A stretch of DNA of 64,000 nt from a bacterium BMS3Abin08. GTDB lineage: Bacteria > Nitrospirota > Thermodesulfovibrionia > Thermodesulfovibrionales > JdFR-85. This document shows positions 59,468-64,000 of the stretch, piece after piece. The stretch's first letter is position 1. Every line of letters starts with the position of its first letter. The stretch spans positions 1-64,000 of the forward strand of contig BDTA01000122.1 in the NCBI GenBank assembly GCA_002897935.1. Direction: 5' to 3'. The notes beneath the pieces were generated by a model, which was not told where the DNA came from, searched no databases, and saw only the letters and a program-made list of their open reading frames with translations. Both the position numbers and the translations under genes were made by a program.

Positions 59468-61003
59468 TCAGACCGTCCCGTTATCGGAGGCTGATGTAAC
59501 CCTCAGGACCTCTTCAAGTGTGGTAACACCCTTGAGGACCTTGTCAAGTCCGTCAACCCTGAGGCTCTTCATCCCCCTGGAAATACCCGCCTCCTTTATT
59601 GCGTGGGCATCTGAGCGGTTATTGATAAGGGGCCTTATGGTATTGTCCACTCTGAGGACCTCAAAGAGCCCCGTCCTTCCGAAATAACCTGTATCACTAC
59701 ATAAGGGACACCCCCTACCCTTAAAGAGGATCTCCGGGGCTGTGGGGAAGTCCCTGAAGTACTCCCTCTCCTGTTCATCGGTCTCGTGTGCCTCCTTACA
59801 GTGTGAACATATCACACGAACAAGCCGTTGGGCAATCACACAGAGCAAGGACGACGATACAAGAAAAGGCTCCACCCCCATGTCGACCAGCCTGGTGACG
59901 GCAGAGGCCGCATCGTTTGTATGGAGGGTACTGAGAACAAGGTGGCCTGTTAATGATGCCTGTATAGCTATATTTGCAGTCTCAACATCACGAATCTCGC
60001 CAACCATGATAACATCAGGGTCCTGGCGCAGGATAGAGCGCAGTCCCGACGCAAAGGTCAACCCTATCCTGGGATTAACCTGTATCTGCCCTATGCCCCT
60101 CAGTTGATATTCAACAGGGTCCTCCACGGTTATGATATTCATGTCCTCAGAGTGTATCCTGTTAAGCGCAGCATAGAGGGTCGTTGTCTTGCCGCTACCG
60201 GTAGGACCCGTGACAAGGATGATCCCATTCGACTGGTTAAGCAGTTCCACAAATAAAGGGATGTCTCCCTCCGCTATACCCACCTCATACAGCCCCAACA
60301 CACCCTGTTTCCTGTCAAGGAGCCTCAAGACGGACCTCTCTCCATGTACGGTGGGGATGACGGATACCCTTATATCTATATCCCTCCCGGCAATCAGGAC
60401 CCTGATGCGACCGTCCTGGGGAAGCCTCTTTTCAGCAATATCCATATCAGCCATAATCTTTACACGGCTGATAAGGGCATCCTGTATTATCTTGGGAGGT
60501 CTGAGCACTGTTCTCAGTATACCGTCAACCCTTATTCTCACATCCAGTTCATTCTCATACGGCTCTATATGAATATCCGAGGCCCTTTCCTTTACAGCCT
60601 GTTGAAGAAGGGCATTCAAAAGCCTTATAATGGGGGCTTCCTCCGTCAGTTCAAGGAGGTCCCTTGGGGATTCGAACTCTGTGGCAACAGAGGCGAGATC
60701 CGCCCCTGAGATATTCTCCATGACCTCTTCAGCAGAACCTATCTGTCCGTAAAGCCTGTTAAGCGCAGAGGTCAACACTTCGTCGTCCACTGTTACGGCG
60801 CTATAGTCCAGCCCTTTTGAGCGGGCCATCTCCCTTAAAGCAAAAAGGCCGTTTTCAGAGGACACGGCGCCGTGAAGAACATTCCCATCGACCTTGATGG
60901 GAAGAAACCTGTTTGCCCTTGCATGAAAAAGGTGAACCTCCTTCAGTAAAGCGACATCTATATCCTTATCGCTGAATCCTGACCCTGGAATTGGGCTCTG
61001 CAT
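59468..61003 (-). CDS. gspE: type II secretion system ATPase GspE
   Basis: A 511-residue secretion ATPase: N-terminal GspE-N domain, Walker A GPTGSGKTT (266-274), Asp box ITVEDPVEYQ, Walker B DPDVIMVGEIRD and His box LSTLHTND. The tetracysteine zinc site has CSHCKE and CPLC about 30 residues apart in the C-terminal part. It powers pseudopilus assembly for the secretion system. It overlaps gspD by 38 bases. The gene order gspC-gspD-gspE on the minus strand is as in many Delta- and other proteobacterial operons; gspF would follow but is not here (the next gene on this strand ends the visible cluster). Confidence 0.96.
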   Translation of the reverse strand: MQSPIPGSGFSDKDIDVALLKEVHLFHARANRFLPIKVDGNVLHGAVSSENGLFALREMARSKGLDYSAVTVDDEVLTSALNRLYGQIGSAEEVMENISGADLASVATEFESPRDLLELTEEAPIIRLLNALLQQAVKERASDIHIEPYENELDVRIRVDGILRTVLRPPKIIQDALISRVKIMADMDIAEKRLPQDGRIRVLIAGRDIDIRVSVIPTVHGERSVLRLLDRKQGVLGLYEVGIAEGDIPLFVELLNQSNGIILVTGPTGSGKTTTLYAALNRIHSEDMNIITVEDPVEYQLRGIGQIQVNPRIGLTFASGLRSILRQDPDVIMVGEIRDVETANIAIQASLTGHLVLSTLHTNDAASAVTRLVDMGVEPFLVSSSLLCVIAQRLVRVICSHCKEAHETDEQEREYFRDFPTAPEILFKGRGCPLCSDTGYFGRTGLFEVLRVDNTIRPLINNRSDAHAIKEAGISRGMKSLRVDGLDKVLKGVTTLEEVLRVTSASDNGTV

Positions 61004-63245
61004 AAACCACCTCTCTCAGAGAATTGAAGTAATCCATTGCTTCCTTAAGGCTCTCCCCTTCCTGAATACCGATGAGATATAAACCGAGGCCGTCAAGATA
61101 CTTGATGATTCTTGCCCCATGAGCCCGGACAATCTCTTCAACATCCTCCCTTGTCAAATAATCTCTGAACCTTATAATCAGTTGTCCTTCAACATAACCC
61201 GTGGTATTTTTCCCGGATTTCAAATCAATCTCACCCTTTCTGGAAGAACCTCTGAAGGTGTCTCTTTTACTGTCGGTTATCTTCTTCAGCGCCTCTGCAT
61301 CCCTTATAATATGCGGGGTCAGAAAAACTATCAGGTTTGTCTTTTTCTTTGTGGTACTTTTTGTCTTGAATGCCCAGCCGAGCAAAGGGAGATCACCTAA
61401 AATGGGAACCTTGTCCGTGGTCTCTTCCTCCTTCTCCTGCATAAGCCCCCCAATCACCACTGTCTGGTTATCCTTTACTATCACAGAGGTATTGGTGGAG
61501 CGTTTGGTTGTTGTAGGGCCGATACTGATGAGAATATCCGCATTCGATTCGTGTTTGACGGAGGAGATCTCCTGATAAATATCCAGCTTCACATAATCAC
61601 CCTCAGTTATCTGGGGAGTTATTCTCAGAGTAATCCCCACATCCTTACGCTCGATGGTACTGAAGACAGAGGAACTCCTTGAAGGGTCTGACTCTCTCTT
61701 TGTAATAAAGGGCACGTTTTCCCCTACCACTATCTCTGCCTCCTTGTTGTTGGATGTAAGTATCTGCGGCGTTGAAAGCACATTCACGGCACCCTTAAAC
61801 TCATCCAGACTGAAGAGGGCGGCAAACCCCGGAACAGTCATTGGAGAGCTGTTCACCGAGCCGTCCGAATTGACTGAAAAAACAGGAACGTTAAGGAAAT
61901 TCCCCAGTCCACCGGCGGAAAATCCTGCGAGGCCACTTAAAACAGACTGCAAGGATGTCGAATTGAGGATACCGACACCGCTTATAAAAACAGGTTCCCC
62001 ATTGTGTGTTATTGCGGCCCTCCAGCGGGAACCAAGTTCTCTCAGCCTGTCTATGGAGGCCTCCACAATCATCGCCTCCACGTATACCTGCCTGCGCCTC
62101 CTGTCAAGCTTCCTGATCACCTGTACAATGTTCTTATAGTCTGAAGGAGAAGACACTATTATAAGGGCATTTGAGGACTTCTCAGGGGTTATCGTGGTCT
62201 TACCTGAAGACTCAAAGGGGATGGCCTTTCTCGCCTTATTAGGGTTACGCGTGCCTTGAGTCGATGCCTTCTGTATGACACCATTGAGGACATCCGCCAG
62301 TTCTTCGGCATCGGCATTTTCAAGAAAATAGACATTGATCCTTCCCTGATCTTCCGGTGATGGAACATCAAGCATCGCGACGACCCTCTTCATCGCCTCC
62401 CTTGCATTCTTTTTCCCGAAGAGAACGACGGCGTTAAGCCTTGTATCGGCAACGGCATGAGCATACTTTGCCCGGGCGATCTTTACCGTACCCTGGGAGG
62501 GAAATGACTTCATCCCTTCATTGAGTATCCTTGCAACCTCCTCTGCCGGGGCATGCTCAAGGTTCACTATCTCAGGGGCCTCCATCGCAGAGGGGCGGTC
62601 AATTCTCTCAATAATCTTCAGTATCTTTTCTATGTTCATTGCCGTGTCAATAATAAGGAGGAGATTGCCCGATCTGAAAGTGGAGATAATACCATCCCTT
62701 GAAACTATGGGCCTCAAAAATACAAGGACCTCCTCGGAAGAAATATGCTTCAGCGGTATGAGCCTCACTATAAATGAATCATCAATGGGTATCCTTCCGG
62801 AAACCACATCTATACCCTTCTGTCTTACCTCCGAGGAAGGCACAATCTTGTATGCATCCACCCCTGTTGGGACAAGTGCATAACCCTTGAACGCCAGCAC
62901 CGATGTGAAGAGCCTGTATGCATCATCGAGCTTCAGCTTGGAAGGTGCGATTATGGTTATCCTGCCCTTAAGCCTCTCATCAAACATCAGGTTTTTCCCG
63001 GTAATATCACTTACAAATTTTGCAAGTACGGGAAGCTCTACATCAACGAAATTGAATGTTACATCCTTTGTACTATCCGCTTTCCCCTGAATACCCCCTC
63101 CAGCATCCACAACTCTCTCTTCACCATAGGCAAAGGGCTCATAAATGAGTACCATTAATGAGACAAACACCACCGCTATCAGAAAAGAGATACCCCTACA
63201 GCTTATTCTCAACCTGAATCCCTTGAAAAAAGAGAAATCCTTCAC
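60966..63245 (-). CDS. gspD: type II secretion system secretin GspD with C-terminal subtilase-propeptide-like domain
   Basis: A 759-residue outer-membrane secretin. A signal or anchor is at residues 10-38, the N0 domain (VTFNFVDVELPVLAKFVSDI), N1-N3 domains and the secretin domain (VPILGDLPLLGWAFKT, KKKTNLIVFLTPHIIRD near 630-650) follow. After the secretin end the protein continues with about 77 residues (683-759) that do not belong to normal GspD: GQLIIRFRDYLTREDVEEI, GARIIKYLDGLGLYLIG and EVVYAEPNSRVRIQR resemble the N-terminal propeptide of subtilisin-like proteases (fervidolysin type). It starts 12 bases after gspC and overlaps gspE by 38 bases. Confidence 0.95.
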   Translation of the reverse strand: MKDFSFFKGFRLRISCRGISFLIAVVFVSLMVLIYEPFAYGEERVVDAGGGIQGKADSTKDVTFNFVDVELPVLAKFVSDITGKNLMFDERLKGRITIIAPSKLKLDDAYRLFTSVLAFKGYALVPTGVDAYKIVPSSEVRQKGIDVVSGRIPIDDSFIVRLIPLKHISSEEVLVFLRPIVSRDGIISTFRSGNLLLIIDTAMNIEKILKIIERIDRPSAMEAPEIVNLEHAPAEEVARILNEGMKSFPSQGTVKIARAKYAHAVADTRLNAVVLFGKKNAREAMKRVVAMLDVPSPEDQGRINVYFLENADAEELADVLNGVIQKASTQGTRNPNKARKAIPFESSGKTTITPEKSSNALIIVSSPSDYKNIVQVIRKLDRRRRQVYVEAMIVEASIDRLRELGSRWRAAITHNGEPVFISGVGILNSTSLQSVLSGLAGFSAGGLGNFLNVPVFSVNSDGSVNSSPMTVPGFAALFSLDEFKGAVNVLSTPQILTSNNKEAEIVVGENVPFITKRESDPSRSSSVFSTIERKDVGITLRITPQITEGDYVKLDIYQEISSVKHESNADILISIGPTTTKRSTNTSVIVKDNQTVVIGGLMQEKEEETTDKVPILGDLPLLGWAFKTKSTTKKKTNLIVFLTPHIIRDAEALKKITDSKRDTFRGSSRKGEIDLKSGKNTTGYVEGQLIIRFRDYLTREDVEEIVRAHGARIIKYLDGLGLYLIGIQEGESLKEAMDYFNSLREVVYAEPNSRVRIQR

Positions 63246-63257
63246 ATCTCCTCCATT

Positions 63258-64000
63258 TCACCTTATATAGTACCTCAAGGTTTTTTTCTTCCCCCGTCTC
63301 TCGATATTCAACACTATTTCATCAGCACCCTTTAGTGCGTTAAACGCCTGAAGAGCCGCTTCAGGATTGGTAATAGGATATTCGTTTATCTTAAACAGGA
63401 TGTCGTTATTTCTCAAACCGAGGCTGTAATAAAGACCGTTTCTCTTTACCTCTTTCAGGACAAACCCGCCCTGCCGTCCGCCCTTGAAGATTGGCTGCAA
63501 CCTTGCATCCGTCATTAATTGCTGAGGGTTGTTTATCGCCTCTTCAACCCGCCGCCTGTCCACCAGATACTCCCCTTCAGAAGTCTTTCGTATAAAACTA
63601 CCCTGTCTTGATCTCCTTAATCCCCCTGAAGGCTGATGGCTTCCGGGTCTCCTCTTCCTGGAGACCTCCTCTAAACTCATAAGCTGAAAATCATGAGGAG
63701 AACCTCCCATAACCAATGCATGATCCTGATAAACACCCTCCAGCATTCCAAATGAAAAGACCCTTTCGCCCTTTCTGAAAAACTCCTGCTTTCCCTCACC
63801 GTTCATGAAGACCGCATAACCCTCACCATCTCCCTCCTGTACCGTTCCGATGAGTTTAATATTCCCCGGTTTTTCTTTACCGGAAGCTGAAGGGGGTTTG
63901 AAATCCTTAAGAGCAAAGCCAAAAGGATTCTTACGGAGGATATTCATGTAGTATCCTATATCCTTCCTTGTCTGACCGGGCTGGTTTACGGTGTTCTTCT
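63258..64000 (-). CDS. gspC: type II secretion protein GspC-like with PDZ domain (5' end outside window)
   Basis: The frame is open past ATG 63947 up to the window edge (residues KNTVNQPGQTRKDIGYY precede MNILRKNPFGFALKDF), so the gene starts beyond 64000, and the N-terminal transmembrane segment is missing here. The visible part has the HR domain (IKLIGTVQEGDGEGYAVFMN, GKQEFFRKGERV) that contacts the secretin, a basic linker (SRKRRPGSHQPSGGLRRSRQ), the YLVDRRRVEEAINNPQQLM segment, and a PDZ domain (GGFVLKEVKRNGLYYSLGLR, NNDILFKINEYPI) for substrate selection. It is 12 bases before gspD. Start near 64000 and beyond cannot be seen. Confidence 0.88.
   Translation of the reverse strand, partial: KNTVNQPGQTRKDIGYYMNILRKNPFGFALKDFKPPSASGKEKPGNIKLIGTVQEGDGEGYAVFMNGEGKQEFFRKGERVFSFGMLEGVYQDHALVMGGSPHDFQLMSLEEVSRKRRPGSHQPSGGLRRSRQGSFIRKTSEGEYLVDRRRVEEAINNPQQLMTDARLQPIFKGGRQGGFVLKEVKRNGLYYSLGLRNNDILFKINEYPITNPEAALQAFNALKGADEIVLNIERRGKKKTLRYYIR

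What the first reader, a model, noticed from the sequence alone, without database searches (positions are those of the whole stretch)
60969..61199. Secretin GspD fused to a subtilase-propeptide-like domain
After the normal end of the secretin domain (about residue 650), this GspD continues with about 77 residues (683-759) that read like the propeptide of subtilisin-family proteases (GQLIIRF..., HGARIIKYLDGLGLYLIGI, VVYAEPNSRVRI). Secretins normally end with a short S-domain that binds a pilotin. A protease-inhibitor-like fold in that place could be a pilotin-independent targeting module, or could hold or chaperone an exported subtilase at the pore. I know of no described example of this fusion.
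Basis: partly seen in the sequence, partly recalled or inferred. Interest (0 to 1): 0.78.

Follow-up and report, generated by a model that had tools for sequence, protein, structure and literature searches.

The report
Secretin with a built-in protease inhibitor
The outer-membrane gate of this bacterium's type II secretion system ends in a small domain that normally holds subtilisin-type proteases inactive; many relatives share the fusion and some encode such a protease in the same operon, which suggests that the gate itself may dock or restrain a cargo enzyme, although no subtilisin-type protease was found in this organism's own draft genome.

Summary
GspD (window 60966-63245, minus) has a complete secretin core (to about residue 657), one short helix, a flexible linker, then a domain (677-752) that matches the fervidolysin-type subtilase prodomain far above cut-off (57.8 bits; cut-off 21). 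It models as beta-alpha-beta-beta-alpha-beta (pLDDT above 90); its best solved matches are subtilisin prosegments. The fusion is real and old: 88 of 150 sampled genomes of the same class (15 families) carry it; none was seen elsewhere in the phylum sample. In nine relatives a subtilase lies inside or beside the gsp operon, and those with complete ends carry a lipobox and a C-terminal sorting tag, both typical of T2SS-exported surface proteins. In Nitrospira, stand-alone proteins grouping with the GspD tails lie directly upstream of subtilase genes. The helix-capping Glu/Asn pair of prodomains is kept in 95%/81% of tails. Most likely the tail is a trans-acting prodomain that docks, restrains or chaperones subtilase cargo. 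The main evidence against: this genome (96% complete) has no detectable subtilase; searching it with a relative's subtilase finds only the GspD tail. A purely structural role remains open. No binding was tested.

The parts
63258..63947 (-). gspC (part in the window; the ORF continues beyond it, 294 aa in all), T2SS inner-membrane protein with a PDZ domain
   Evidence: ORF; Pfam T2SSC 26.1 bits (just under its cut-off of 27) and PDZ matches; same position upstream of gspD in relatives
60966..63245 (-). gspD, type II secretion secretin, 759 aa, with the extra C-terminal domain
   Evidence: TIGR02517 537 bits; the only secretin found in the genome
61302..61796 (-). Secretin (beta-barrel) domain, residues 484-648
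   Evidence: PF00263 over 484-648; genome coordinates 61302-61796
61242..61298 (-). Single helix after the last barrel strand, residues 650-668, in the place of the first S-domain helix; then a low-confidence linker to about 683
   Evidence: AlphaFold model of residues 380-759 (mean pLDDT only 54): helix at model positions 271-289, pLDDT under 50 at 284-304
60990..61217 (-). Subtilase-prodomain-like domain (Fervidolysin_NPro-like), residues 677-752, beta-alpha-beta-beta-alpha-beta
   Evidence: PF22148 57.8 bits; pLDDT above 90 in AF2; Foldseek top hits 1spb_P, 3cnq_P, 1r6v
60990..60998 (-). Glu750-Pro-Asn752: equivalents of the helix-capping pair of prodomains (Glu69/Asp71 in subtilisin BPN')
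   Evidence: Column frequencies (Glu 95%, Asn 81% in GspD tails); capping pair described in PMC6993865
60969..60989 (-). C-terminal peptide SRVRIQR (753-759), where a cis prodomain would run on into the active-site peptide
   Evidence: Sequence; distances from the Glu to the C-terminus across tails
59468..61003 (-). gspE, T2SS ATPase; starts inside the last codons of gspD
   Evidence: PF00437 471.7 bits; ORF coordinates

Best explanation
The tail is a trans-acting relative of a subtilase prodomain, fused once to the GspD of this bacterial class. It sits on a flexible linker behind the barrel, presumably on the periplasmic side of the outer membrane, in up to 15 copies per pore. Its sheet, capping residues (Glu750, Asn752) and C-terminal peptide would dock on the catalytic domain of a subtilase in the periplasm. 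It would thereby hold the protease inactive or correctly folded, and bring it to the secretin for export. In relatives, the subtilases encoded inside or beside the gsp operon are the likely clients. In the window's organism no client was found, so there the domain is either retained for a client missed in the 96%-complete draft, or is drifting towards another role. Shown: the fusion, the fold (by model), conservation, operon linkage in relatives, and sorting signals on linked subtilases. Inferred: binding, inhibition or chaperoning, placement, and the order of events.
For: Fold and family: PF22148, AF2, Foldseek. Conservation: 88 of 150 class genomes have GspD plus tail; three state changes on a GspD core tree (compatible with one gain and two losses) suffice. 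Docking residues: Glu in 95% and Asn in 81% of 100 tails, 100% of both in 34 cis prodomains. Linkage: in 9 tailed genomes (families f2, f8, f10) a subtilase lies inside or next to the gsp operon, right after gspN, just before gspC or next to gspG; about 1.5 expected by a rough uniform-placement estimate, binomial P 2.7e-5. In G062 the subtilase ORF runs in frame into gspG. Of 12 linked ORFs, 11 show the His motif, 11 the Ser motif and 10 a lipobox; a Gly-rich/Cys/hydrophobic/basic end was seen in 8, and CFI-box-CTERM in G140, G052 and G062. Lipoproteins and such tags are known T2SS routes (PMC12802150, PMC11980579). Stand-alone tail relatives overlap subtilase genes in Nitrospira and group with GspD tails, not with the cis prodomains. 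Precedents: ORF2 of Aeromonas (PMC5638518) and SUB1-ProM (PMC6993865).
Against: The window's genome has no Peptidase_S8; a relative's full subtilase hits only the GspD tail. Twelve other tailed genomes also lack a PF00082 match, though one of them (G144) has a subtilase fragment at a contig end. In most tailed genomes the subtilase is not near gsp. Families f7 and f8 have degraded motifs despite having subtilases. Loss of the YAEP[ND][YF] motif tracks absence of subtilase (0/7 against 34/52 in genomes at least 95% complete, Fisher P 0.0014), but the motif was chosen after looking and the phylogenetic pairs test is not significant (3:0, P 0.25). Binding itself is untested.
Confidence: 0.48

Rival explanations
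1. The tail is now a structural or targeting module of the secretin with no protease client. It takes the place of the distal S-domain and helps the ring to assemble, sit in the outer membrane or attach to the cell wall, using the prodomain fold only as a convenient interaction surface.
For: No subtilase in this genome; the tail is kept in tailed genomes without a PF00082 match. It follows one short helix where S-domains normally begin. In over a dozen genomes of family f16 and relatives the tail is followed by a SPOR domain, a peptidoglycan-binding type, which argues for a periplasmic anchoring neighbourhood.
Against: Retention of the helix-capping Glu/Asn pair is not expected for a purely structural role. 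The subtilase linkage and the stand-alone relatives next to subtilases would be unexplained.
Confidence: 0.32
2. The tail binds a different periplasmic partner: a non-S8 protease, a pseudopilin or another cargo with a subtilase-like docking surface.
For: Would explain retention in genomes without S8. The fold is a common protein-binding fold (RRM, ACT and NapD also appear among Foldseek hits).
Against: No candidate partner was identified; the capping motif is typical of subtilase docking in known complexes (PMC6993865).
Confidence: 0.1
3. The tail is a relic: an old fusion with a neighbouring subtilase gene fragment that is carried along without function.
For: Subtilase genes lie beside gspC or after gspN in relatives, so a source was at hand; some families show degraded motifs; tail lost in L029 and G135.
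Against: Conserved as an open, foldable domain across 15 families with near-invariant positions; tails form their own group apart from cis prodomains, separated by a branch of SH-aLRT 100.
Confidence: 0.07

Closest known systems
GspD secretins of the type II secretion system (TIGR02517; PulD, EpsD, ExeD, XcpQ)
   Same: N0, N1-N3 and secretin domains, gspC upstream and gspE downstream
   Different: Adds a subtilase-prodomain-like domain after a single short S-domain-like helix; described secretins end in the S-domain, with or without the pilotin-binding helix alpha-12 (PMC6532946)
Fervidolysin / subtilisin prodomains (PF22148, Inhibitor_I9)
   Same: Fold, sequence profile, helix-capping Glu and Asn, YAEPN motif
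   Different: No subtilase catalytic domain follows in cis; in tails with no extension the protein ends at or close to where the prodomain would be cut (17 of 79 exactly)
ORF2 chaperone of Aeromonas sobria serine protease (PDB 3wqb)
   Same: Separate, prodomain-like protein encoded next to a subtilase; its C-terminus sits in the active site (PMC5638518); among the Foldseek hits
   Different: A free protein, not part of a secretin
Stand-alone propeptide-like inhibitors (SUB1-ProM of Plasmodium, POIA1)
   Same: Trans-acting, same fold; SUB1-ProM has the Glu/Asn capping pair and lies next to subtilase genes (PMC6993865)
   Different: Eukaryotic free proteins with demonstrated inhibition; no secretion machine
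Membrane-bound T2SS chaperones LipB / CpaB of Acinetobacter
   Same: Dedicated factor encoded next to one T2SS cargo and needed for its export (PMC4713064)
   Different: Anchored by their own N-terminal transmembrane domain, not fused to the secretin; a different fold class by my own knowledge

Membership tests
GspD secretin (TIGR02517) | Full-length match over the curated cut-off | tested here: met
   537 bits against 351.35, residues 64-657
GspD secretin (TIGR02517) | Encoded between gspC and gspE | tested here: met
GspD secretin, pilotin-dependent type | S-domain with helix alpha-12 after the barrel | tested here: inconclusive
   Only one helix (650-668) then a linker in a low-confidence model, mean pLDDT 54
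Fervidolysin_NPro-like domain (PF22148) | Profile match over the gathering score | tested here: met
   57.8 bits against 21
Subtilase prodomain fold | beta-alpha-beta-beta-alpha-beta with best solved matches among prodomains | tested here: met
   (1spb_P: probability 1.00, TMt 0.73, rmsd 2.0, E 0.007; E-values probably weakened by 45 disordered residues in the query)
Subtilase prodomain (cis) | Followed by an S8 catalytic domain in the same protein | tested here: not met
   ORF ends at residue 759
Trans-acting subtilase inhibitor or chaperone | Subtilase encoded next to it or in the same genome | tested here: not met
   None in the window's genome; met in nine relatives
Trans-acting subtilase inhibitor or chaperone | Helix-capping acidic/Asn pair kept | tested here: met
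   Glu750/Asn752; 95%/81% across tails
Trans-acting subtilase inhibitor or chaperone | Binds and inhibits or folds a subtilase | not testable with these tools
   Needs protein biochemistry

The most novel reading that the evidence does not exclude
A secretin that carries its own cargo-specific chaperone/inhibitor: the T2SS pore of much of a bacterial class uses a fused trans-prodomain to capture and restrain self-activating subtilase cargo, in some members encoded in the same operon and tagged at both ends for surface anchoring, until it passes the outer membrane. It would be a direct, cargo-recognising domain on GspD itself.
Probability: 0.38. Interest if true: 0.86.

Novelty: new variant of a known kind. 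Interest (0 to 1): 0.7.

Why it matters
How T2SS machines recognise folded cargo is a long-standing open question. A secretin fused to a domain with a predictable ligand (a subtilase catalytic domain), with candidate clients in the same operon of several relatives, would make cargo recognition directly testable with two purified proteins. It also points to a group of surface-sorted subtilases, and to tail-like stand-alone proteins in Nitrospira for which I know of no described role.

Tried and rejected
Artefact or frameshift: rejected, the tail is conserved in many independent genomes. Known S-domain under another name: NCBIfam and Pfam give no S-domain match there and the tail matches the prodomain family instead. 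phmmer of the tail alone against PDB sequences gave only chance-level hits; fold comparison was needed. Subtilase in the window's own genome, by family and by a relative's protein: none. CFI-box-CTERM tags in the own genome: none. Motif decay in subtilase-free genomes as proof of coupling: suggestive, not significant after allowing for phylogeny. Recent origin of the tail from the gsp-linked subtilases: not supported, cis prodomains and tails are separated by a branch of SH-aLRT 100 (few columns, many inner forks unresolved). The model of barrel plus tail has low confidence and does not place the tail.
Full report
What is there. The ORF 60966-63245 (minus) encodes a 759-residue GspD. TIGR02517 covers residues 64-657 with 537 bits (cut-off 351); Pfam finds the N0 domain, Secretin_N repeats and Secretin ending at 648. 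Residues 677-752 match PF22148, the N-terminal prodomain of fervidolysin-type subtilases, with 57.8 bits (cut-off 21). gspC lies upstream and gspE downstream; gspE starts 38 bp inside the tail, and similar overlaps are seen in close relatives L159 and L160.

Fold. AlphaFold2 on a 45-row alignment gives beta-alpha-beta-beta-alpha-beta with pLDDT above 90 over the domain and disorder before it. Foldseek against solved structures ranks the subtilisin BPN' prosegment first and fervidolysin third; Tk-subtilisin propeptide, furin prodomain, POIA1 and the Aeromonas ORF2 chaperone also appear. E-values are modest (0.007 at best), probably because 45 disordered residues were in the query; probability is 1.00, target TM-score 0.73 and rmsd 2.0 for the first hit. 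A second model of residues 380-759 (21 rows, low overall confidence, mean pLDDT 54) shows a helix at 650-668, a low-confidence linker to about 683 and then the same domain at pLDDT 84-92. So the tail is a separate domain on a flexible linker behind the first S-domain-like helix. Its placement relative to the barrel was not resolved.

Distribution. A genome-contig search returned 80 GspD relatives; 44 of them besides the window carry the tail, nearly all labelled Nitrospirae/Nitrospirota. In 150 sampled genomes of the class, 88 genomes in 15 families have GspD with the tail. In 246 genomes of the phylum, full-length matches (barrel end plus tail) occurred only in this class. A tree of 90 GspD cores needs three changes of tail state, consistent with one gain and losses in L029 and G135. 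In over a dozen genomes of family f16 and relatives the tail is followed by a SPOR domain (PF05036 at 24.8 bits in L043). SPOR domains bind peptidoglycan (my own knowledge), which argues that the C-terminus is periplasmic.

Subtilases. The window's genome (96% complete, 123 contigs) has no Peptidase_S8 match, one PF22148 match (this one) and one secretin. When it is searched with a full-length subtilase of the same family (G048), the only hit is the GspD tail, 32% identity over the prodomain. Other T2SS-type genes (gspF, a gspE-F-pseudopilin-K-L-M set) exist on other contigs, so the system looks usable. Of 88 tailed genomes, 75 have a PF00082 match and 13 do not; one of the 13 (G144) has a subtilase cut by a contig end (L239).

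In nine tailed genomes the subtilase is at the gsp locus itself. In six genomes of family f10 it follows gspN, and in most of these a second one precedes gspC; in G140 it precedes gspC; in G052 it sits between gspF and gspG, overlapping gspG by 4 bp; in G062 the subtilase ORF runs in frame into gspG. A rough uniform-placement estimate expects about 1.5 such genomes; nine gives P 2.7e-5, but six of the nine are one family, so the number of independent events is smaller (three families). Twelve linked ORFs were checked. The Asp-, His- and Ser-motif patterns were found in all except L147 (only the Ser motif fitted my pattern, although its sequence reads DTG and HGTM) and L154 (no Ser motif; the ORF is cut at the contig end). 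Ten have a lipobox; the two without are the same two, whose true N-termini were not captured by the ORF call. At the C-terminus, eight show Gly-rich stretch, Cys, hydrophobic segment and basic end, and G140, G052 and G062 carry CFI-box-CTERM (104, 103 and 94.5 bits, cut-off 40). A subtilase next to a stand-alone tail-like protein in Nitrospira (L233) carries JDVT-CTERM (34.6 bits, cut-off 27). Lipoproteins such as PulA and InvL use the T2SS and GspN to reach the surface (PMC12802150), and MYXO-CTERM and GlyGly-CTERM proteins need the T2SS (PMC11980579). The linked subtilases are therefore predicted T2SS cargo. That prediction is inference.

Stand-alone relatives. In Nitrospira, small ORFs (mostly about 129-146 aa) with a signal-like N-terminus and the same domain ending at or within one residue of the C-terminus overlap the start of subtilase ORFs that have their own prodomain. 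They score 70-85 bits with the tail model, against about 28-44 for the neighbouring cis prodomains. In a tree of 166 domains a branch with SH-aLRT 100 separates the subtilase cis prodomains from the GspD tails, and the 11 Nitrospira stand-alone proteins fall with the tails; two other stand-alone proteins (G054, G162) fall with the cis prodomains. The tree has only 75 columns and many unresolved forks; one short row labelled S8 (L035_26) is a GspD tail from a broken frame and was mislabelled by my pattern.

Docking residues. Prodomains grip subtilases through their sheet, a Glu/Asp(Asn) pair capping two helices (Glu69/Asp71 in BPN') and a C-terminal peptide in the active site (PMC6993865). In 100 GspD tails the equivalent Glu is kept in 95% and Asn in 81% (Asp in a further 8%); in 34 cis prodomains of the same set both are at 100%. 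The window's tail has Glu750 and Asn752. In 17 of 79 tails the protein ends exactly eight residues after the Glu, as in a cleaved BPN' prosegment (register from my own knowledge of that sequence), and 28 end within 7-10; the rest are shorter or longer, so the free C-terminus is a tendency, not a rule. Among genomes at least 95% complete, an intact YAEP[ND][YF] is found in 34 of 52 with a subtilase and 0 of 7 without (P 0.0014). The motif was defined after seeing the data, and a phylogenetically independent pairs test gives 3:0, P 0.25. I treat this as a lead only.

Reading. The best-supported account is a trans-acting prodomain fused to the secretin that docks and restrains or folds subtilase cargo, with precedents in ORF2 of Aeromonas (PMC5638518), SUB1-ProM and the membrane-bound T2SS chaperones LipB and CpaB (PMC4713064). 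The strongest objection is that the window's organism has no detectable subtilase. A structural or anchoring role is the main rival. It is filed as a GspD (all tested criteria met) with a PF22148 domain (met). It is not filed as a subtilase prodomain (no catalytic domain in cis) nor as a proven inhibitor (untested).

Noticed in passing
L147:11031-13826 (genome G062): One ORF reads prodomain, Peptidase_S8, fn3, CFI-box-CTERM, then the GspG pseudopilin with its methylation motif: a subtilase run in frame into gspG, either a true fusion or a lost stop codon.
   Followed up: partly
L233:6744-7133, L234:10588-11007, L235:9623-10012, L236:5636-6022, L240:10173-10613, L243:6789-7223, L244:7123-7512, L246:6748-7161, L248:7665-8054: Nitrospira encodes small stand-alone prodomain-like proteins overlapping the start of subtilase genes; they group with GspD tails rather than with cis prodomains.
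   Followed up: partly
L043, L044, L045, L046, L048 and SPOR-tagged loci: Tailed GspDs of family f16 and relatives with a further C-terminal SPOR domain, an unusual secretin architecture.
   Followed up: partly
L144, L145, L149, L150, L151 (C-termini of linked subtilases): Gly-rich + C(S/A)(I/V)G + hydrophobic segment + basic end, resembling JDVT/MYXO-CTERM tags; no NCBIfam CTERM model matched in the four loci scanned (L144, L145, L149, L151), so it may be an undescribed sorting-tag variant.
   Followed up: no
L249, L250 (genomes G088, G048): Operons that look like pilMNOPQ are followed by lipoproteins and prodomain-bearing subtilases, so the subtilase association may extend to type IV pili.
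   Followed up: no
window genome, contigs C47, C83, C118: T2SS/T4P-type genes are scattered (gspF on C47; an E-F-pseudopilin-K-L-M set on C83; pilT/pilC-like genes on C118) while only one secretin is found.
   Followed up: partly
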